Source: Kiritimatiellia bacterium
GTDB lineage: Bacteria; Verrucomicrobiota; Kiritimatiellia; RFP12; UBA1067
DNA length: 25,777 bases
NCBI GenBank assembly: GCA_024405255.1
Contig: JAKSOY010000033.1
Coordinates: 1 to 25,777 of the forward strand
Reading direction: 5' to 3'
The position numbers were made by a program, and so were the translations under genes. The notes under the pieces were generated by a model. It worked only from the letters and a program-made list of their open reading frames with translations. It searched no databases and was not told where the DNA came from. Positions within the stretch are counted from its first letter, which is position 1; every line of letters begins with the position of its first letter. Below, piece by piece: positions 147 through 8,494 of this stretch.

Positions 147-2411
147 ATGGATATGACTCGTCTCTCGTTTACGGGCCTTCTCGGGGCCCTGTTCGTCGCC
201 GTTGGCTGCGGTGGGCTTTCTGCCGAAATTCCAAGTGATCCGCCCGTGGATCCTTCGGTCGTTCGCGTGGCCGTCTTCACCGACAAGGGCGCGCGCTCGA
301 TGGGCGCCTTCCGCCATCTGCAGATTGCGACCTTCGCCAAGAACGTTCACGGCTTCCCCGTGGACGGTAAGATGGTGGCCGAGGGCGCGCTCAACAAGGC
401 CGACGTGCTGATCATGCCGGGCGGCAGTTCCGGCGCCGAAGCGAAGGCGATGGGACCCGAGGGCGTGAAGAAGCTCGAAGCCTTCATCCGAAACGGCGGC
501 GGCTACATCGGCACCTGTGCGGGCTGCTTCCTCGTGAGCCAGAACGACAAATCCCATTCGACGATGATGGGACTCATCCCCTACAAGAACAGCGTGAGCG
601 GCGGCGGCGCCGACATGCTCATCCGTTTCACGAAGGACGCTGAAACGATGATGGGCATCAAGCCGCACACGCACCGCGTGGACTACCATAACGGTCCCGT
701 CATGGTGCCCGCCAAGCCGGTCGAGGGCGCGGACTTCAAGGTGATCGCCACCTACTATTCGGACGTCAATGCAAACGAAAAGCCGCGCGAAACAATGGCC
801 GGCAAGGCCGCCATCGTCGCCGGCTCCTACGGCAAGGGCCGCATCGTCGCCATCGGACCGCACCCAGAAAAGGACGTCGGCGACCACAGCATTCTCAAGG
901 GCGCACTGCGCTATGTGACGCATGGTCGCGCCGGCGAATGGACTCTGCCCCACCGCAAACCCGGCCAGCTCGCCGTGGGCGTGGTGGCGGACAACGCCTT
1001 CAGCGCCCAAACAGCGCGCTTCGCCCAGAAGCTGATGCGCCTCGGGGAATTCGAACTGCAGCCCCTCTGCGCATCCCTGATCGAAGAAGAATCGGCCCGC
1101 ACCGTCGACGTGATGCTCGTGCCGCCCTGTGCCGAAAAGAGCACGAGCAAGGGCGGACTCGGGTCCAACCGTAACGTCACGCGCGGTTTCCTCAAACGTG
1201 GCGGCCGCGTGATCGTGTGGGGCGAGATGGCCCCGCACTATGCGAAACTCGGCGACGGCGTCACCGTGGTCCAGAACGAAGAAGAGGCGCTCGCAGCCCT
1301 GCGGGCCCGTGCAAAGGAACCCGCCCCCGCCCCGCGACCGGCGGTCAAGAAGGTCGAGAAGCCCGTCAAGGTCGCGTACTACACGGACCGCGGCGGCGGT
1401 TCCTACCCGATTGCGGAACTCCTCGCAAATGCACCGGAATACCAGCTCGACATCGTCAACGCCGAAGACATCCGCAACGGCGCGTTGAAGAACGCCGACC
1501 TCGTGGTGATGCCGGGCGGACTTTCCAACGTGCAGTACAACAACCTCGGCGCCCTCGGACGCGAGGCGATCACGAACTTCGTGAACCAGGGCGGCAAGTA
1601 CTACGGCATCTGCGCCGGCGCCTATCTCGCCTCGCAGACGGTTACGTCCAAGAGCCTGCGCCTGAGCATGGTCCCCTTCAAGCACGACGGCGAGTCGTAT
1701 CGCGGCTGGAAGTCGACACGCATCAAGCTCACGGACGAAGGCCGCAAGGTGTTCGGCACGAAGGCGAAGAGCCGGATCGTGGAGTATTGGGGAGGTCCCG
1801 TACTCGTACCGGGAACGCCGATCCCCAATACGGACGTCAAGACGCTCGCCACCTACACGGCCAGCTCGATCAGTACCTGTTCGCCCGATGCCCGCAAGCC
1901 GATGACAGGTAAGACCGCTTTTGCGGCCGGTACCGTGGGCAAGGGCAAGGTCTTCATCTCGTCGTGCCACCCGGAATGCTACGACCACAGCATCGACCTC
2001 GTCCAGGGCATCCTCGCCTACCTCACGGGCGTCAAGCCCACATGGAGTCCGCGCCAGCGCCAGCTTGGCGACTACGTAGTCGGCTATGAGTCGCACAAAG
2101 ACCGCGACTTCGCCCGCTGGTTCACAAAGGATCTAATGCACGCCCCCGGCTTCTTCGCCTGGGACATGCACGACCGCCATGTGCCGACGGACCTGCTCTC
2201 TCTTGATGCCCTGCTGGTGATCAATCCCAAACGCGACTATTTCGGTCCACTGGTCACTGGATTCATCGCCTCGGGTCGTCCCGTGATCGCCATCGCCCGT
2301 ACGCCGGAACAAGTCAAGGCCGTCGAAGGCCTCAAGGGTGTCACGGTCGTACGGTCGTACGAAGAAGTTCTGCCCGCCTTGAAGAAGTTCAAGGCGGCTG
2401 CAACGCACTGA
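147..2411 (+). CDS. Secreted tandem BPL_N / glutamine amidotransferase-like protein
   Basis: A 754-residue exported protein made of two copies of a class I glutamine-amidotransferase-like fold, of the type called BPL_N (first found at the N-terminus of biotin-protein ligase). Repeat 1 begins near residue 39 and repeat 2 near 405. Each has a strand ending in MPGG and a nucleophile elbow, GTCAGC around Cys124 and GICAGA around Cys489, so both putative catalytic Cys are kept. Each repeat is followed by a segment of about 100 residues that looks like a further alpha/beta unit. The N-terminus is a signal sequence: the hydrophobic stretch at residues 6-20 leads to Cys21 (a weak lipobox, AVGC) or to a signal peptidase site after LSA26. 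The substrate is unknown for this family in secreted form. The start at 147 is chosen for its AAAGGG spacing; ATG 153 is an alternative. It is convergent with the 97-residue gene, 6 nt away. Confidence 0.75.
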   Translation: MDMTRLSFTGLLGALFVAVGCGGLSAEIPSDPPVDPSVVRVAVFTDKGARSMGAFRHLQIATFAKNVHGFPVDGKMVAEGALNKADVLIMPGGSSGAEAKAMGPEGVKKLEAFIRNGGGYIGTCAGCFLVSQNDKSHSTMMGLIPYKNSVSGGGADMLIRFTKDAETMMGIKPHTHRVDYHNGPVMVPAKPVEGADFKVIATYYSDVNANEKPRETMAGKAAIVAGSYGKGRIVAIGPHPEKDVGDHSILKGALRYVTHGRAGEWTLPHRKPGQLAVGVVADNAFSAQTARFAQKLMRLGEFELQPLCASLIEEESARTVDVMLVPPCAEKSTSKGGLGSNRNVTRGFLKRGGRVIVWGEMAPHYAKLGDGVTVVQNEEEALAALRARAKEPAPAPRPAVKKVEKPVKVAYYTDRGGGSYPIAELLANAPEYQLDIVNAEDIRNGALKNADLVVMPGGLSNVQYNNLGALGREAITNFVNQGGKYYGICAGAYLASQTVTSKSLRLSMVPFKHDGESYRGWKSTRIKLTDEGRKVFGTKAKSRIVEYWGGPVLVPGTPIPNTDVKTLATYTASSISTCSPDARKPMTGKTAFAAGTVGKGKVFISSCHPECYDHSIDLVQGILAYLTGVKPTWSPRQRQLGDYVVGYESHKDRDFARWFTKDLMHAPGFFAWDMHDRHVPTDLLSLDALLVINPKRDYFGPLVTGFIASGRPVIAIARTPEQVKAVEGLKGVTVVRSYEEVLPALKKFKAAATH

Positions 2412-2417
2412 CGCGTT

Positions 2418-2711
2418 TCATTCAATGCCGAAGAAGTCTTCGGCGCTCATCCTTCCACGCAGCGCTTTATACGGGGCTTTCAGGAAAGTAACAATGCGAC
2501 GCGGTGGTTTGGTCATCGACGAGGAGGCATCGTCCTCCTCGTTCTTTTTTTCTTCTTGCCGCTTTTTATCCTTGGCCCGGATAAAGGCTTCTGCCGTCGC
2601 GCGCGTGACATGGTGGACCTTCATCAACAGAGCAATCTTCGTCTCATGGAAACGTTCCTGCGGATCCATCTGACGAAGCGTTTTCGTTTTTTTCTGAGTC
2701 GTTGTTTTCAT
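2418..2711 (-). CDS. Small basic protein of unknown function
   Basis: A 97-residue highly charged protein that I do not recognise. Residues 1-50 are basic and predicted helical, with a segment (LMKVHHVTRATAEAFIRA) that could be a short helix-turn-helix-like hairpin. Residues 50-66 form a Lys/Glu/Asp-rich linker. The C-terminus, about residues 68-97, is basic and ends in SAEDFFGIE. No signal peptide or membrane segment is seen. The start is supported by GAGGAAG 7 nt before the ATG. It lies 20 nt downstream of the sigma-4.2-like gene on the same strand and is very probably co-transcribed with it. Its reading frame also contains, on the opposite strand, a terminator-like hairpin serving the convergent gene. 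It may act with the sigma-like protein, but this rests only on adjacency. Confidence 0.6.
   Translation of the reverse strand: MKTTTQKKTKTLRQMDPQERFHETKIALLMKVHHVTRATAEAFIRAKDKKRQEEKKNEEDDASSSMTKPPRRIVTFLKAPYKALRGRMSAEDFFGIE
2518..2551 (+). terminator. Intrinsic terminator for the BPL_N gene, inside the antisense gene
   Basis: Stem CGAGGAGG (2520-2527) pairs with CCTCCTCG (2534-2541) across a 6-nt loop. The stem is extended by A-T and G-T pairs outward and is followed by C and seven T (2545-2551). It lies about 107 nt past the stop of the plus-strand gene, within the coding sequence of the minus-strand 97-residue gene. Confidence 0.6.
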
Positions 2712-2731
2712 TTTTTTCTTCCTCGCGTATT

Positions 2732-2908
2732 TTAAAGGAAATCCATCACATCCGTCGCCCCGTAGCGACGCTTCATTTCCAAACGCAGCTTACGCAACGC
2801 GCTCTGCTCGATCTGCTGTACGCGCTGCCGTGTAATGCCGAAGTGACGAGCCGTCTCCTCGAGTGTATGTGAAACACCGTAGCCAATCTTCATTTCTTCA
2901 CCGTCCAT
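2732..2908 (-). CDS. Stand-alone sigma-70 region 4.2-like helix-turn-helix protein
   Basis: A 58-residue protein. After an N-terminal tail of about 14 residues it consists of a sigma-70 region 4.2 signature: TLEETARHFGITRQRVQQIE (residues 15-34), then QSALRKLR (35-42) and a short C-terminal tail ending VMDFL. Full sigma factors have regions 2 and 3 before this; none is present, and no frameshifted remnant is visible upstream. The recognition helix matches primary sigma factors (TRERIRQIE in E. coli RpoD) except that the residues equivalent to Glu585 and Arg588 are Gln. A perfect AGGAGG at 2915-2920 sits 6 nt before the ATG, so the small frame is clearly meant to be translated. It is followed 20 nt later by the 97-residue gene. 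It could be a DNA-binding regulator or a competitor of region 4 on RNA polymerase or its partners; which one is not decidable here. Confidence 0.8.
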   Translation of the reverse strand: MDGEEMKIGYGVSHTLEETARHFGITRQRVQQIEQSALRKLRLEMKRRYGATDVMDFL

Positions 2909-2919
2909 TTTAAACCTCC

Positions 2920-2936
2920 TGTTATTTCCTTACATG
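2920..2936 (-). repeat. 17-nt element, copy 1 (upstream of the sigma-4.2-like gene)
   Basis: The minus strand reads CATGTAAGGAAATAACA, identical over 17 nt to the element at 5223-5239 upstream of the AAA+ gene. Here it directly precedes the AGGAGG ribosome site, starting 28 nt and ending 12 nt before the ATG. It contains an ATG followed at once by TAA. It may be an operator, a promoter part or an mRNA leader element. Confidence 0.6.
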
Positions 2937-2947
2937 AGGTTAAACGG

Positions 2948-2990
2948 AAGAACTTCGTACCATCTTACGGGACGGTACGAAGTTTTTTCG
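2948..2990. terminator. Strong hairpin between the AAA+ gene and the sigma-like gene
   Basis: AACTTCGTACC (2951-2961) pairs perfectly with GGTACGAAGTT (2974-2984) over a 12-nt loop, and A-T/G-T pairs extend the stem outward to 2948/2987. The plus strand continues with six T, so the fold looks like a terminator in that direction. On the minus strand, where the flanking genes lie, the tail is TTCTTCCGTTT, a weaker terminator. It could partly isolate the sigma-like gene from read-through out of the AAA+ gene. Confidence 0.5.
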
Positions 2991-3015
2991 TGTTTTTTCG
3001 TTTCTCGTCCGCCGA

Positions 3016-5187
3016 TTAGAACCCGACCGTTGCGACCTTCGGACCATCCTTCTTCAGCAAACTTTCCTCACGCAGGGCCGCCAGCCGGTCCGCGTTCGTA
3101 ATCGTACCGCCGAGATAGAACTGTTCCTGACGCACGGTGCGGAAATCGCCCGGTGCCAGGTTGGGAATCGATTCGAGCTCTGCCTGTTCGGATTCCGACA
3201 GTTCCGACTTGAACATCTTCTCGAAGAAGACCTTCTTCCCGGCCGCATCAAGGTAGCCGAATTCCAGCTTGAAGGTGAAACGACGCATGGCCGCCGCATC
3301 GAGATTCTTCGAGAAGTTCGTTGCGGCCACCAGAATGCCGTTGAAGTTCTCCATCTGCTGCAGCAGTTCGTTGACCTGTGTCACTTCCCACGAATGGTCC
3401 GCCCCCGAACGGTCCTGCAGAAGGCCGTCGATTTCGTCCAAGAACAGAATCGCATGCTCGGCCTCCGCACGACGGAAGGCCGCCGCGATGTTCTGCTCCG
3501 ACCCGCCGACGTATTTCGAGAGCAGGTCGGACCCCTTCATCACAATCACGCGGCGGTCGAGTTCCTTGCCGAGGAACTTCACGAACTCGGTCTTGCCCGT
3601 GCCGGGGGGCCCGAAGAGCAGCACGTTCATCCGCGGCTTGTCCTCGGCCTCGAGATTGTAGGTCGCGTCCAAGAAGTTTCGTGCCGAGGCGACGATCTTC
3701 GCAGGCGACACCTTCCCCTTCACGTTAAGACCGTCCAGCGAGTAGCCCTTGGCCGGCATGAACTTCTCGTCCGCCGTGATGCCCATCAGCTTGCAATGCG
3801 GCTTCATCAGCGTCGCCACAAGTTCATCGACCTTGTCCGCCGCCGGCGCCATGCGCTTCACATTCTCGAGGACAATCGAGATACCACCGGCGCTCGTCTG
3901 GTACTTGTCGGCGTAAAGCGCAATCTTCTCTTCGGGAATCCGACGCTTGAGGCCGAACTTATTGATAAGATTCCGCCAGATGGCCCGGCGCTGGGCATTG
4001 GTCATGCGTTCGAAGCAAATCGAGTAGTCGAAACGACGACGGACACTTTCGTCCATGTGTTCGGCCGGTGCATTCGAAATCCAGATGGCCGGCAGCTTCA
4101 TCTCGTCGAGCAGGGTGTTCATCACCCCCTTCTCGGTGGACTTCCCGCCGCTCAAGGAAATTCCGAAGAAACTATAGGCCGATGTGCTACGCAGCAGTTC
4201 ATCCGCTTCGTCGACAATCAGGATGGTTTCATTCGGATCCTCCTTGCTGTTCGCAACCTGGATGCCGACCATGCGGCTGGGTGCATTCATATTGCGCCCG
4301 TCATCATCGCCCTGCTTGATTTCGAAACCCGTGTACCCCAGTTCACGAATCAGCGCCTTTGCGAAGCTCGACTTGCCGGTCCCCGGTACACCATAGAGCA
4401 GGATGTTGCACTTCCCCTTGCCCTTGCTGGCCGCAATCATCGATTTGAGGAGTTCGCCGTCTTTCGTCGCCAAATCCCCATAATACGACCAGGGCAGCGT
4501 TTCGCCCTCGACCTTCTGATAGAAGCGACGCTCGACGGCTTCATTGTCAGACCCGTTCAGATAACCGCCATAGTTGCGATAGAAGAAGTCCCAATCGTCA
4601 TCAAGAAGCTCGAACTTCCTCAAACGGCCATTCGCCGCCAGCATCTTCTGGACCTCCTCAAGCGAACGGTCGAGCGCCATCGCGAAATAGAGCGGTTTGT
4701 CACGGTCGTCGATGCGAACCGGCCACGAGAAACACGTCTGGTTCACAATGTAGGCGAGGCAGAGAATCTCGCTCTCAAGTTCGTCCAGTTTCAGGATGCG
4801 CGTGAGTTCCTTGAAGCGGCGTTCCATCGGTTCATTCTTCGCCGATACCATATCCGCCAGCACGAGATCGCGCAGGGCATAGAGTACGAGGCGGCACTTG
4901 CCACGTGATTCCTCGTGATTCCAGAGCACCTGGAAAATGTCATCCAGCGGGTCGTCGAAGTCCAGCCGCCCCACGCGCGAACGTCCCTCACGCATCGTTT
5001 TCAGTTCGTCTTCCGAATAGGCCGTTTCGATCAGTTCCACCGCCTGATCGTGGTCGCAGCTGTTGCGGATGATGTCGAAAAAGTCATCGTCACGAACATC
5101 GTCGTCATAGTTTTTGACGACGTTACTCCAATACCCCATCAACTTGCGAATGAGATACGACTGCGGTACATGTTTGAATTTTGCCAT
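3016..5187 (-). CDS. Tandem AAA+ ATPase (two AAA modules)
   Basis: A 723-residue soluble protein with a helical N-terminal region of about 240 residues and two AAA modules. Module 1 has Walker A GVPGTGKS (about 266-273), Walker B ILIVDEADE (about 321), a sensor-1-like WISNAP and an arginine-finger-like VRRRFD. Module 2 has Walker A GPPGTGKT (about 525), Walker B ILFLDEIDG (about 580), sensor 1 AATN and AMRRF. Both modules keep the Lys, Asp-Glu and Arg residues needed for ATP hydrolysis. The N-terminal part (LDELESEILCLAY, then a SLEEVQKML stretch) resembles the winged-helix-like preface of SpoVK/COG0464-type ATPases and probably binds a substrate or partner. No protease, nuclease or membrane segment is fused. 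The long N-terminus and degenerate module spacing differ from Cdc48/p97. The ATG is preceded by TAGGG. Its 454-nt upstream region carries the 17-nt element also found before the sigma-4.2-like gene. A remodelling ATPase is certain; its client is unknown. Confidence 0.85.
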   Translation of the reverse strand: MAKFKHVPQSYLIRKLMGYWSNVVKNYDDDVRDDDFFDIIRNSCDHDQAVELIETAYSEDELKTMREGRSRVGRLDFDDPLDDIFQVLWNHEESRGKCRLVLYALRDLVLADMVSAKNEPMERRFKELTRILKLDELESEILCLAYIVNQTCFSWPVRIDDRDKPLYFAMALDRSLEEVQKMLAANGRLRKFELLDDDWDFFYRNYGGYLNGSDNEAVERRFYQKVEGETLPWSYYGDLATKDGELLKSMIAASKGKGKCNILLYGVPGTGKSSFAKALIRELGYTGFEIKQGDDDGRNMNAPSRMVGIQVANSKEDPNETILIVDEADELLRSTSAYSFFGISLSGGKSTEKGVMNTLLDEMKLPAIWISNAPAEHMDESVRRRFDYSICFERMTNAQRRAIWRNLINKFGLKRRIPEEKIALYADKYQTSAGGISIVLENVKRMAPAADKVDELVATLMKPHCKLMGITADEKFMPAKGYSLDGLNVKGKVSPAKIVASARNFLDATYNLEAEDKPRMNVLLFGPPGTGKTEFVKFLGKELDRRVIVMKGSDLLSKYVGGSEQNIAAAFRRAEAEHAILFLDEIDGLLQDRSGADHSWEVTQVNELLQQMENFNGILVAATNFSKNLDAAAMRRFTFKLEFGYLDAAGKKVFFEKMFKSELSESEQAELESIPNLAPGDFRTVRQEQFYLGGTITNADRLAALREESLLKKDGPKVATVGF

Positions 5188-5222
5188 TTTGTCTTTTCCC
5201 TACTTCTTATAACGGTTCAGCA

Positions 5223-5239
5223 TGTTATTTCCTTACATG
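5223..5239 (-). repeat. 17-nt element, copy 2 (upstream of the AAA+ gene)
   Basis: Identical to 2920-2936. On this copy the match is framed by an inverted repeat, CATGT-N9-ACATG (5221-5239), which would suit a dimeric regulator. It lies 36-52 nt before the ATG of the AAA+ gene. Confidence 0.6.
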
Positions 5240-5407
5240 CGTTCGAATCCAATCGAGAATTATTTGCTCTTCTTCAAGATGGAGTGCATTTCCCATGTCA
5301 TTGAACCCTTTCATTTGACCCTACATTCGATTAAACGAACAAGCGACGGCCATCTTACAAAAAATCATCTACTACCGCAAAACCCAGATACTGAAATGAC
5401 AAGGTAC

Positions 5408-5470
5408 CCAAATGCTAGGGCGCCAAAATGCTAGGACGCCAAAATGGTAGGGCGCCAAAATGGTAGGGCG
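5408..5470. repeat. Four tandem 16-nt units
   Basis: Units at 5408-5422 (15 nt), 5423-5438, 5439-5454 and 5455-5470, with consensus CCAAAATGSTAGGGCG. The last two are identical. The last unit runs into the palindrome at 5467-5487. Confidence 0.8.
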
Positions 5471-5487
5471 CGCTCTCCGAGCGCGCC
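5467..5487. repeat. REP-like perfect palindrome
   Basis: GGCGCGCTC, loop TCC, GAGCGCGCC: a 9-bp GC-rich stem with a 3-nt loop and no T-tract. This is typical of a dispersed extragenic palindrome rather than a terminator. Confidence 0.6.
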
Positions 5488-5562
5488 GCAATGCCGGGCA
5501 GAATAGATTACAATTCACAAGACCCGAAATGGACATTGGAATGGCAATCACCCGGAAATTAC

Positions 5563-5584
5563 GGCGCGTTCAAAGAACGCCGCC
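5563..5584 (-). terminator. Hairpin downstream of polA, possible terminator or second REP-like palindrome
   Basis: GCGTTC (5566-5571) pairs with GAACGC (5575-5580) around AAA, and outer GGC/GCC pairs add three more across one bulged base. It lies 58 nt past the polA stop. The minus-strand tail (GTAATTTCC) is only weakly T-rich. Its sequence resembles the palindrome at 5467-5487. Confidence 0.35.
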
Positions 5585-5641
5585 ATGCGGGCTCGTGCGC
5601 GGACCGACCACACACTTGCCGAAAAAGCCCGCCGGATTGTC

Positions 5642-8494
5642 TTAATGCGCGTCGAGCCAGTTGGCGCCGACACCGACGGAGACTTCAAGCGGCACCCCGA
5701 GGGACATCGCCCCTTCCATTTCGCGCTTGACGATTTCCTTGACCTGTTCCACTTCGCCCTTCGGCACATCGAAGAGCAGTTCGTCGTGGATCTGCAGGAT
5801 CATCTTCGCCTGAAGACCGGCCGCCTTGAGCGCGCGATCGACTTTCACCATCGCGAGCTTGATCAGGTCCGCCGCCGTTCCCTGCACGGGCGTGTTGATC
5901 GCATCGCGTTCGGCGCCTTGACGCGCCGTCGCATTGCGCGAGGCGATGTCGCGTAGCGTGCGGCGGCGTCCAAGCGCCGTGACCGCATAGCCCGCGTCGC
6001 GCGCCTTGGCGATGGAGGTATCCATGAACGCGCGGATCTTCGGATAGAGCTTGAAGTAGGTGTCGATCAATCCCGCCGCCTCCTTGCGCGCGACCTGCAG
6101 GCGCTGCGCGAGGCCAAACGACGAGATGCCGTAGATGATGCCGAAGTTGACCATCTTGCACTTGCGGCGCATGTCGTCCGTCACGAGAGGCGGCATCACG
6201 TCGTAGACGCGTGCGGCCGTTTCACGATGGATGTCGGCGCCTTGCGCGAACGCGGCGAGCATCGACTGGTCGCCGCTCATCGCAGCCATGATGCGCAGTT
6301 CGATCTGCGAGTAGTCGGCCGAAACGAGGACATGGTCCGCATCGCGCGCGACAATCGCCGCGCGGATCAGCTTGCCGCGGTCCGTGCGCACGGGGATGTT
6401 CTGCAGATTCGGGTCGGACGAACTCAGCCGCCCCGTCTCGGTAAACGCCTGGGCGAACGTCGTGTGGACGCGTCCATCGGCACGGTCGATGCAGCGCGGC
6501 AGCTTGTCCACATAGGTGCCCTTCAATTTCGTGCACGCGCGATACTCGAGGATCTTGCGTATGACCGGATGGGCATCGACGAGCGACTGCAGGGCCTTCT
6601 CGTCTGTCGAGAACTGGCCCGTCTGCGTCTTCTTCGCACCCACCGGCTTGAGTCCGAGCTTGCCGTAGAGCAGGTCCGCCAGCTGCTTCGGCGAATCGAT
6701 GTTGAGATCCGGCATGCCGGCTGAAGCGCGGATTTCCGTCGCGTAGGCGGCGATTTCACGTCCCAGCTCGATCCCGAATTTCTCCAGCGCCGCCGTGTCG
6801 ATCTTCACGCCCGTCTGCTCCATCTCGACAAGAATCGGCACGAGCGGCTCTTCGCTCTGCTCAAGCGCCGCGAGCGCGCCCGCTTCGACGACTTTCGGAC
6901 GCAGCACCGCATCGAGCCGCAGGGTCACATCGGCATCTTCCGCCGCATAGTCGAGAATCTCCTCGGGCGACAGATCGGCCATGTTCTTCTGTTCCTTGCC
7001 ACGTTCCTTCTCGCCGATGAGCTGCGTGATCGGAATGGGATTGTAATCGAGAAACTCGCGCGCGAGCGTATCCATGTCGTGACGCGCGGCCGCGTCGATC
7101 ACATAGTGTTCCAGCATCGTGTCGCGCACCTTAGAACCGAAGGTGATGCCGTAGCGTCCCAGCATCGTGCGGTCGAACTTCGCATTCTGCGCGATGAGCG
7201 TCTTCGACGGATCGGCAAAAGCCGGCGCGAAAATCTGCACAAAGGCCTTTGCCGCCTCCAGCGCGGCCGGCTTGGACGCTTCCAGCGCCGCCGCGCTCGC
7301 AAAGAGATCGTCCGCCGGTGCGGCGGCCGTACCGGATCCGGTCCGATGCGGCGGCACGGCGACATACCACGCCTTGCCGGGTTCCGTGGCAAAGCTCATG
7401 CCCACGAGATCGGCCGTCTGCGCGTTCGTGCCGGTCGTCTCCGTATCGAACGCGAACTTGGGCGCCGCCAGCAGGGTCCAGGCGAGATCCTGGGCTTCCT
7501 TTGCCGTCTTGACGAGCGTGTAGGTATGCGGCCAGTCCTTCAAGGTGGTGAACGTCTTGACCGGCGCCGTCTCGCCGGCCTCGGACACGGGGACCGTCAC
7601 CGTTCCTGCACCGATCTCCACCGTTTCGCCCAGCAGGCGTTTCGCGAGCTGGCGCAATTCGAACTTCGTGCACACGGCACGGACCTTTTCGGCATCCAGC
7701 GTACCGCGCGCGAAGGCATTCCAATCGACCTCGAGCGGCACGTCGGTGCGGATCGTCGTGAGGAACTTGCTCATCTTCGCATCTTCGGCACCGGCGGCGA
7801 CCTTCTCCGCGAGCTTGCCCTTCAGTTCACCCGCGTGCGCGAGGATCCCTTCTACCGTGCCGTATTGCGCGAGCAGCGTCGTCGCGGTCTTTTCGCCGAC
7901 GCCGCGAATGCCGGGGATGTTGTCCGCCGTGTCGCCCGCGAGGGCGAGATAGTCGATCATCTGCGCCGGCGAACTGAGCGACCAATGCTCCTGAACCTTC
8001 GCCTCGTCATAGATCTCGGGGCCATCCTTGCCGTGTCCGGGACGAAACAGGTGGATGTGTGGACGCACCAGCTGCGCCGCATCCTTGTCGGGCGTAGCGC
8101 AATAGACCTCGAATCCCTCGGCCGCCGCCTTCACCGCCAGCGTACCCATCACGTCGTCGGCCTCGAAACCGTCCTGCCGTACCACGGGAAGTCCAAGCGC
8201 CTCGGCGACCTCAAAGGCATAAGGGATGTTGGCCGCGAGATCCTCCGGCATCTTCTCGCGCTGCGCCTTGTAGGGAGGATAGGCCGTGTGACGGAACGTC
8301 GGTCCGCCCGGGTCCATCGCCAGCACCGCATGCGTGGGCTTGTATTCACCGAGAATCGACGTGATGCCGTTCACGAAACCGATCAGCGCGGAAACGTTGA
8401 GACCCGTCGAGGTCATCCGCGGGCTCCGCAGGAACACGAAATGTCCCTTGTACAAAAACGGCATCAGATCGATAATGAAAATACTCTTCTTCAT
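5642..8494 (-). CDS. polA: DNA polymerase I
   Basis: A 950-residue enzyme that fills gaps and removes primers in replication and repair. Three domains are present. Residues 1 to about 300 are the 5'-3' exonuclease, with FEADDVMGTLA and the helix-hairpin-helix stretch GDTADNIPGIRGVGEKTA. About 320-560 is the proofreading exonuclease, with FDTETTG (Exo I), NAKFD (Exo II) and YAAED (Exo III), all acidic residues kept, so it should be active, unlike Taq. The rest is the family A polymerase, with motif A (SADYSQIELR), motif B (KMVNFGIIYG) and motif C (QIHDELLFD). An Ala-rich insert lies within the 3'-5' domain after VAVPPH. The start is placed at 8494, only 7 nt behind a TATAAT and with no Shine-Dalgarno, so the mRNA is predicted to be leaderless. 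An inverted repeat overlaps the promoter. Confidence 0.97.
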   Translation of the reverse strand: MKKSIFIIDLMPFLYKGHFVFLRSPRMTSTGLNVSALIGFVNGITSILGEYKPTHAVLAMDPGGPTFRHTAYPPYKAQREKMPEDLAANIPYAFEVAEALGLPVVRQDGFEADDVMGTLAVKAAAEGFEVYCATPDKDAAQLVRPHIHLFRPGHGKDGPEIYDEAKVQEHWSLSSPAQMIDYLALAGDTADNIPGIRGVGEKTATTLLAQYGTVEGILAHAGELKGKLAEKVAAGAEDAKMSKFLTTIRTDVPLEVDWNAFARGTLDAEKVRAVCTKFELRQLAKRLLGETVEIGAGTVTVPVSEAGETAPVKTFTTLKDWPHTYTLVKTAKEAQDLAWTLLAAPKFAFDTETTGTNAQTADLVGMSFATEPGKAWYVAVPPHRTGSGTAAAPADDLFASAAALEASKPAALEAAKAFVQIFAPAFADPSKTLIAQNAKFDRTMLGRYGITFGSKVRDTMLEHYVIDAAARHDMDTLAREFLDYNPIPITQLIGEKERGKEQKNMADLSPEEILDYAAEDADVTLRLDAVLRPKVVEAGALAALEQSEEPLVPILVEMEQTGVKIDTAALEKFGIELGREIAAYATEIRASAGMPDLNIDSPKQLADLLYGKLGLKPVGAKKTQTGQFSTDEKALQSLVDAHPVIRKILEYRACTKLKGTYVDKLPRCIDRADGRVHTTFAQAFTETGRLSSSDPNLQNIPVRTDRGKLIRAAIVARDADHVLVSADYSQIELRIMAAMSGDQSMLAAFAQGADIHRETAARVYDVMPPLVTDDMRRKCKMVNFGIIYGISSFGLAQRLQVARKEAAGLIDTYFKLYPKIRAFMDTSIAKARDAGYAVTALGRRRTLRDIASRNATARQGAERDAINTPVQGTAADLIKLAMVKVDRALKAAGLQAKMILQIHDELLFDVPKGEVEQVKEIVKREMEGAMSLGVPLEVSVGVGANWLDAH

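What the first reader, a model, noticed from the sequence alone, without database searches (positions are those of the whole stretch)
2418..5239. Candidate undescribed module: tandem AAA+ ATPase, sigma-4.2-only protein and small basic protein under a shared 17-nt element
Seen: three consecutive minus-strand genes, of which the first (AAA+) and second (58-residue sigma region 4.2 protein) are each preceded by the same 17-nt sequence. Known: AAA+ proteins remodel protein complexes, and sigma region 4 contacts the beta flap and -35 DNA. Inference: the module could remodel or divert RNA polymerase or a sigma complex, with the 97-residue protein as an accessory. I know of no named system with this composition.
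Basis: partly seen in the sequence, partly recalled or inferred. Interest (0 to 1): 0.7.

Follow-up and report, generated by a model that had tools for sequence, protein, structure and literature searches.

The report
RNA-repair-linked unfoldase with ClpP-docking tail
The three genes are real and belong to a large, uncharacterised family of protein-unfolding motors in gut Kiritimatiellota whose relatives often sit beside a second ClpP protease and the RNA-repair regulator RtcR, which suggests an unknown protease switched on by RNA damage.

Summary
In detail: three consecutive minus-strand genes (723-aa tandem AAA+, 58-aa sigma-region-4 protein, 97-aa protein) and an exact 17-nt repeat before the first two. 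The reading does not: among 56 related loci a short region-4 gene lies near the AAA+ in 3, and no other exact 17-mer was found. What recurs is a small protein of the 97-aa family within 700 nt (35 of 56), clpP within 1.5 kb (18), divergent rtcR within 3 kb (13), and sigma-54 sites (29 of 52; 0 of 52 reverse strands). One relative reads rtcR | small-AAA+-rtcA-rtcB; another rtcB-clpP-small-AAA+. Of 19 genomes with two or more ClpP hits, 18 carry the AAA+; the extra ClpPs form one clade with the catalytic triad kept. All complete AAA+ copies examined end in (I/V/L/M)GF, the tripeptide with which Clp ATPases dock on ClpP. Best reading: a Cdc48-like unfoldase that feeds ClpP, in many relatives under RtcR/sigma-54 control in an RNA-damage response, with the small protein as adaptor. 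ClpP binding and function are inferred. The window's own copy has no clpP, rtcR or sigma-54 site nearby, so those links are shown for relatives only.

The parts
3016..5187 (-). Tandem AAA+ ATPase, 723 aa; mostly helical N-domain (about 1-230), D1 and D2 AAA modules
   Evidence: PF00004 twice; AF2 mean pLDDT 82, pTM 0.57; fold matches Rix7, AFG2, p97/Cdc48
4369..4392 (-). D1 Walker A GVPGTGKS (residues 266-273)
   Evidence: Lys kept in 36 of 36 aligned sequences, D1 Walker B Glu in 31 of 36
3589..3612 (-). D2 Walker A GPPGTGKT (residues 526-533)
   Evidence: Lys kept in 36 of 36, Walker B Glu in 36 of 36
3505..3516 (-). D2 pore loop KYVG (residues 558-561), the aromatic-hydrophobic loop of protein translocases (role recalled)
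   Evidence: Y, W or F in 36 of 36
3019..3027 (-). C-terminal VGF, (L/I/V)-G-(F/L) type, at the end of a low-confidence tail
   Evidence: [IVLM]GF in the last 10 residues of 49 of 49 complete copies (window included) and 120 of 120 listed database proteins (P0001 is the window protein); residues 715-723 pLDDT below 50
2732..2908 (-). 58-aa sigma-70 region 4 (4.2) only protein, no region 2 found
   Evidence: PF04545 38.5 bits, cut-off 24.1
2418..2711 (-). 97-aa member of the small SAEEFFG protein family: helical hairpin (17-67) and short C-terminal helix
   Evidence: family HMM E 1.4e-16 after iteration, the window protein being one of the seeds; AF2 pLDDT 81, pTM 0.49
2427..2447 (-). SAEDFFG linear motif near the C-terminus of the small protein
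   Evidence: alignment A3; a motif of this type in the last 16 residues of 17 of 31 members and the first 30 of 13 of 31
5223..5239 (-). 17-nt element, copy 1, 35 nt before the AAA+ start
2920..2936 (-). 17-nt element, copy 2, 11 nt before the sigma-like gene
2951..2984 (-). 14-bp hairpin between the AAA+ stop and the sigma-like gene, possible terminator
   Evidence: one search's terminator count in the region (4) is no higher than in shuffles (mean 4.2), the fold energy is (z -5.4)

Best explanation
The AAA+ protein is a Cdc48-like, double-ring protein unfoldase that docks on ClpP through an (I/V)GF tripeptide at its C-terminal tail and threads proteins into it for degradation. [quoted passage not shown] The small SAEEFFG protein would be the adaptor or substrate selector. 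Shown by sequence: the gene associations, sigma-54-type sites, ATPase and pore-loop motifs, the GF tail, and the kept catalytic triad of the extra ClpP. Inferred: ClpP binding, RtcR control of these promoters, the adaptor role and the substrates. The window's copy is a divergent member that kept the AAA+, the GF tail and the small protein but has no clpP, rtcR or sigma-54 site in reach; it pairs the small protein with a sigma-region-4 protein under a private 17-nt element and would have to use a ClpP encoded elsewhere.
Against: No physical or functional data. 27 of 45 AAA+-positive genomes show no second ClpP, so those copies would have to use the clpX-linked ClpP or none; one ClpP of the extra clade (G008 C197, L110) has no AAA+ hit within 3 kb. 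The tripeptide is terminal here, not in an internal loop as in ClpX, and in 7 of 13 ClpX-type frames of these genomes the pattern [IV]GF was not found, so it may not be the docking signature of this lineage. In PMC8745299 a grafted IGF activated ClpP but apparently not through the usual pockets, so the motif alone proves nothing. GF tails could serve another partner. The window has no clpP or rtcR and no strong sigma-54 site by the AAA+ (best 8.8 of 13.2); nine sampled relatives in its part of the tree (L009, L020, L022, L023, L027, L028, L029, L044, L052) also lack sites at 11.5 or more. 23 of 52 loci have no site at that threshold. 32 of 45 RtcR hits are not within 4 kb of the AAA+. Genomes are fragmented MAGs and related to each other; the p-values ignore this.
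Confidence: 0.48

Rival explanations
1. The AAA+ is a Cdc48/Rix7-like remodeller of RNA-protein complexes or stalled ribosomes that belongs to the RtcR regulon; the extra ClpP is merely co-regulated and never bound.
For: RtcR/RtcAB links do not need ClpP (L115); closest folds are ribosome-assembly and p97 remodellers; the about 49%-identity subtype has sigma-54 sites but no clpP found beside it; 27 of 45 AAA+-positive genomes have one ClpP or none.
Against: A second ClpP is nearly confined to AAA+-carrying genomes and mostly adjoins the gene, and the conserved tail is the ClpP-docking tripeptide.
Confidence: 0.28
2. It is chiefly an anti-phage system of ATPase-plus-protease type, like IetAS or the Cdc48-like ATPases of CoCoNuT loci, that uses RNA cleavage as infection alarm.
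For: The top named profiles are IetA (120.9 bits; E 2.4e-39); PMC11090510 (passages) describes RtcR-associated defence loci and Cdc48-like tandem ATPases in CoCoNuTs; several loci carry a ResIII helicase beyond rtcR.
Against: IetA score is far below the curated cut-off of 510 bits; no gene of that protease type turned up among the recurrent neighbours, though no dedicated search was made; one operon is a full rtc repair operon, and the window copy sits among housekeeping genes (polA, serS, queA).
Confidence: 0.13
3. One reading: the module remodels or diverts RNA polymerase or a sigma complex, with the small protein as accessory.
For: A sigma-region-4 protein adjoins the small gene in the window and stands just upstream of it in L010 and L016; full-length sigma-70 genes (4 of 56 loci within 5 kb) or weakly ECF-like genes (14 of 56 within 2.5 kb) lie near others.
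Against: Short region-4 genes in 3 of 56 loci. Of 10 ECF-like proteins tested, 2 pass a Pfam sigma cut-off, 3 match below it and 5 show no sigma match; the two that pass are not the ones just upstream of the operon. Sigma-54 sites separate the region-4 gene from the operon in L010 and L016.
Confidence: 0.06

Closest known systems
ClpX/ClpA/ClpC (Hsp100) with ClpP
   Same: AAA+ motor with aromatic pore loop, (L/I/V)G(F/L) tripeptide, gene sometimes beside clpP
   Different: Here a Cdc48-like tandem AAA protein with the tripeptide at the C-terminal tail; no zinc-binding or Clp N-domain among the 25 Pfam matches listed; most genomes examined also have a clpP beside a ClpX-type gene
Cdc48/p97, archaeal Cdc48 and actinobacterial Cpa with the 20S proteasome (PMC6017811, passages read)
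   Same: D1-D2 tandem AAA fold; a Cdc48-like ATPase acting with a barrel protease
   Different: Partner proposed here is ClpP; mostly helical N-domain; CDC48 profile 86 bits vs cut-off 802.65
rtc RNA-repair regulon (RtcR, RtcA, RtcB; PMC7790460, passages read)
   Same: RtcR orthologue, sigma-54-type site, in L115 one gene row with rtcA and rtcB
   Different: No AAA+ unfoldase or ClpP part was named in the passages read; in other loci the small-AAA+ pair stands beside rtcR without rtcBA in reach
CDC48-like ATPases of Type III-A CoCoNuTs (PMC11090510, passages read)
   Same: Tandem Cdc48-like ATPase in a system type often linked with RtcR homologues
   Different: [quoted passage not shown] here D1 keeps Walker A; the search of that text found 0 occurrences of 'clp'
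IetAS defence system
   Same: AAA ATPase with a serine protease partner (composition recalled)
   Different: Score far below the IetA cut-off; partner there a subtilisin-like protease (recalled)

Membership tests
ClpP-partner unfoldase (Clp ATPase) | (L/I/V)-G-(F/L) ClpP-docking tripeptide | tested here: met
   49 of 49 and 120 of 120 with [IVLM]GF, but terminal rather than in an internal loop
ClpP-partner unfoldase (Clp ATPase) | Hsp100/Clp AAA+ subfamily (not classic AAA) | tested here: not met
   Best Pfam is PF00004 AAA (25 of 56 matches shown); NCBIfam ClpX model 29.1 bits vs cut-off 359
ClpP-partner unfoldase (Clp ATPase) | Genetic linkage to clpP | tested here: inconclusive
   Met in part of the family: 18 of 56 loci, 18 of 19 multi-ClpP genomes; not met in the window itself, and 27 of 45 AAA+-positive genomes have no second ClpP
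ClpP-partner unfoldase (Clp ATPase) | Physical binding and ATP-driven degradation | not testable with these tools
   Needs purified proteins
Cdc48/p97 | D1-D2 tandem AAA fold | tested here: met
Cdc48/p97 | Family profile above curated cut-off | tested here: not met
   TIGR01243 86 bits vs 802.65
Cdc48/p97 | Cdc48-type N-domain | tested here: inconclusive
   Model shows residues 10-221 nearly all helix; N-domain not folded or searched alone
RtcR/sigma-54 regulon | sigma-54 -24/-12 promoter | tested here: inconclusive
   Relatives: 29 of 52 loci vs 0 of 52 and 7 of 182 controls. Window copy: no site (best 8.8 of 13.2)
RtcR/sigma-54 regulon | rtcR adjacent | tested here: inconclusive
   Relatives: 13 of 56 loci, RtcR identity confirmed for those scanned. 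Window copy: no RtcR-like frame in 25.8 kb
RtcR/sigma-54 regulon | Induction by RNA damage through RtcR | not testable with these tools
   Needs expression data
IetAS | IetA equivalog score | tested here: not met
   120.9 bits vs 510
sigma-70 factor (58-aa protein) | Region 2 plus region 4 | tested here: not met
   Region 4 only

The most novel reading that the evidence does not exclude
A new class of ClpP unfoldase outside the Hsp100/Clp lineage: a Cdc48-type double AAA+ motor that acquired a C-terminal IGF-type ClpP-docking tail, works with its own ClpP and a small helical adaptor, and is switched on by RtcR when RNA is cut, coupling RNA repair to targeted protein degradation in one regulon.
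Probability: 0.4. Interest if true: 0.87.

Novelty: new variant of a known kind. Interest (0 to 1): 0.7.

Why it matters
To my knowledge (recalled) described ClpP unfoldases are Hsp100/Clp proteins and the Cdc48 branch is linked to 20S proteasomes. A Cdc48-like motor with a ClpP tripeptide would join two lines of AAA+ proteases. The RtcR link would extend the rtc regulon from mending RNA to removing proteins, a link between RNA damage and protein quality control that can be tested directly with four genes.

Tried and rejected
Genome-wide census of the 17-mer: no whole genome is held, so only the loci in hand were scanned; the 17-mer stays unexplained. A sigma-54 site for the window's own AAA+ or sigma-like gene: none convincing (best 8.8 and 10.6 of 13.2); eight sites at 11.5 or more lie elsewhere in the window, so the threshold alone is not proof of a promoter. 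Sigma-70-type promoters in 2300-5700: none found. Kinship of the small protein by fold: no PDB match below E 5. The 'ECF-like' upstream proteins: I first took these for ECF sigma factors; of 10 tested, 2 pass a Pfam sigma cut-off (L016 8924-9526, L034), 3 match below it (L053 5599-6501, L022, L030) and 5 have no sigma match, so I call them weakly ECF-like. Viral relatives (5 confirmed of 76 stretches that matched a pattern) are 29-33% identical and were used only in the alignment. IetAS membership: below cut-off. Papers: no paper held all of kiritimatiell, clpp, aaa+; 5 hold rtcr and clpp, none on this by title; 10 hold cdc48, clpp and igf, 9 listed, none on this by title; the titles listed show no such system either, apart from the CoCoNuT paper discussed above. 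The library lacks most subscription journals, so this is not proof that nothing is in print.

Limits of the counts. Start codons for the sigma-54 test were set by me for 52 loci; for L017, L026, L045 and L053 the chosen start hid sites that one search shows elsewhere near the operon, and these were not added to the 29. ClpP counting dropped 11 hits with long frames and weak scores; one of them (G112 C30) is a ClpP start fused in frame to another ORF beside the AAA+. Some counted ClpP hits are contig-end fragments (for example G046 C224, G015 C9 and C132). The AAA+ table includes one fragment (G007 C421) taken. The search model for the small protein (A3) was built mostly from copies found beside AAA+ genes, so adjacency of those copies is partly by construction. 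In one search I took 13 frames beside clpP as ClpX by position and P-loop, not by profile; 6 carry [IV]GF, L106 reads IGY where seen, the other six were not looked at further; two more partial frames (L112, L113) show no match. The phylum search scored only two candidates a genome.

Full report
WHAT IS THERE. The window carries, on the minus strand, a 723-aa tandem AAA+ protein (3016-5187), a 58-aa protein consisting of sigma-70 region 4 only (2732-2908) and a 97-aa protein (2418-2711), with an exact 17-nt repeat at 5223-5239 and 2920-2936. A strong hairpin (2951-2984; -23.2 kcal/mol, z -5.4) separates the AAA+ stop from the second repeat. The flanking genes are ordinary: polA upstream, a BPL_N/glutamine-amidotransferase-like protein downstream, and further off serS, an RNA methyltransferase and queA.

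THE AAA+ FAMILY. A protein search returned 1,044 homologues at E 1e-3 or better among the 7,985 candidates scored; of the 120 listed, one is the window protein, two are 80-82% identical and the rest 65-68%, nearly all of 722-732 aa. The family occurs in 45 of 114 genomes of one GTDB family and 59 of 387 genomes drawn from the phylum, some with two to four matches. An AlphaFold2 model (mean pLDDT 82, pTM 0.57) matches Rix7, AFG2 and Cdc48/p97. Both P-loops keep their lysine in 36 of 36 aligned sequences, and the D2 pore loop has an aromatic residue in 36 of 36, as expected of a protein-threading motor. The last residues are of low confidence in the model, yet end in (I/V/L/M)GF in 49 of 49 complete copies (window included) and 120 of 120 listed proteins; three Spirochaete and one of five phage relatives also end near IGF or TGF. 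(L/I/V)-G-(F/L) is the tripeptide by which Clp ATPases dock on ClpP (PMC8745299, abstract and passages). Of 13 ClpX-type frames beside clpP in these genomes 6 carry IGF or VGF and 7 do not show it.

NEIGHBOURS. In 56 loci the following lie near the AAA+: a small protein of the 97-aa protein's family within 700 nt, 35 (34 of the 52 loci with more than 500 nt upstream); clpP within 1.5 kb, 18 (10 of the 39 loci with both flanks in hand); weakly ECF-like gene within 2.5 kb, 14; rtcR within 3 kb, 13; full-length sigma-70 within 5 kb, 4; short region-4 gene within 2.5 kb, 3. The small protein has a helical hairpin (LF.E.K..MVMRIYGVSR..A..II..R) and short SAEEFFG-type motifs at one or both ends in many members; the window's 97-aa protein was a seed of this family and scores E 1.4e-16 in it. 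In 114 genomes it was found in 28, of which 27 carry the AAA+, and 33 of 45 hits lie within 1.5 kb of an AAA+ hit.

CLPP. A Clp protease search of 114 genomes and the AAA+ table together show 19 genomes with two or more ClpP hits; 18 of them carry the AAA+, and 1 of 69 AAA+-negative genomes has two (Fisher p 6e-8, not corrected for kinship). Twenty ClpP hits (19 genes) lie within 3 kb of an AAA+ hit. Fifteen extra ClpPs form one clade apart from the clpX-linked ones (SH-aLRT 97 and 98, quick tree), share DTMKM where the others mostly have DTMQF or DTMQY, and keep the catalytic Ser, His and Asp; one of the fifteen (L110) has no AAA+ hit within 3 kb. Against: 27 of the 45 AAA+-positive genomes have no second ClpP.

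RTCR AND SIGMA-54. The most frequent other neighbour family in the clustering is a divergent gene, RtcR, in 15 loci: NF038308 709.7 and 708.5 bits in L038 and L001 (cut-off 650), 403 in the divergent L002 form. Sigma-54-type sites such as TGGCACGGTTATTGC occur within 220 nt upstream in 29 of 52 loci, against 0 of 52 reverse strands and 7 of 182 other ORFs. RtcR is present in 29 of 45 AAA+-positive and 5 of 69 negative genomes (p 6e-11, same caveat), and 13 of its 45 hits lie within 4 kb of an AAA+ hit. In G001 (L115) the order is rtcR | small-AAA+-rtcA-rtcB, and in G012 (L114) rtcB-clpP-small-AAA+. RtcR binds tRNA fragments ending in 2',3'-cyclic phosphate (PMC7790460, passages).

THE WINDOW'S COPY. 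On the tree it groups with P0002 and P0003 (support 100) inside a larger set (95) in which nine sampled relatives outside the 49% subtype (L009, L020, L022, L023, L027, L028, L029, L044, L052) have no sigma-54 site at 11.5 or more. It has no rtcR, clpP or sigma-54 site in reach. It keeps the GF tail, both ATPase sites and the small protein, but has a sigma-region-4 protein and a private 17-mer instead. In L010 and L016 such a region-4 gene also stands before the small gene, but a sigma-54-type site lies between them.

MECHANISM. Most likely (0.48): an RNA-damage-induced AAA+/ClpP protease with the small protein as adaptor. The associations and motifs are shown; binding, control and substrates are inferred. 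Main rival (0.28): a Cdc48-like remodeller in the same regulon that never touches ClpP.

NOVELTY. The ingredients are known; the combination (Cdc48-like motor, terminal ClpP tripeptide, own ClpP, RtcR link) was not found in the searches listed under Tried and rejected. The nearest prior description read is that of CDC48-like ATPases in CoCoNuT systems, a class often linked with RtcR (PMC11090510, passages), whose first ATPase domain has lost its Walker motifs and in whose text the term 'clp' was not found.

Noticed in passing
window 5410-5471: 3.9 tandem copies of a 16-nt unit (AAATGCTAGGGCGCCA) between polA and the AAA+ gene.
   Followed up: no
window 5225-5314, minus strand: A 29-codon reading frame just upstream of the AAA+ gene that ends inside the first 17-mer copy; coding status unknown.
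   Followed up: no
L002, L006, L007, L011, L014, L024, L032, L049 (0.8-7 kb from the AAA+): Recurrent block: an about 400-aa protein without Pfam match (one member tested) and a ResIII/RadD-like helicase, in several loci followed by a full-length sigma-70 and the divergent RtcR. A relative of the about 400-aa protein, by eye, also follows a small-rtcB pair in L116. Possibly a larger RtcR-controlled island.
   Followed up: partly
L016 8924-10946, also L022, L034, L043, L053: ECF-like sigma gene next to a gene of one cluster whose member in L016 is a serine/threonine kinase, in five loci.
   Followed up: no
L062-L066 (viral contigs, three of them over 340 kb): Distant tandem AAA+ relatives in phage contigs with a degenerate D1 P-loop; one of five ends in KIGFHP.
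   Followed up: no
L033-L042 subtype (L041 excepted), about 45-50% identical to the window protein: A second AAA+ subtype with sigma-54 sites but no small protein or clpP found beside it, in several genomes alongside the first.
   Followed up: partly
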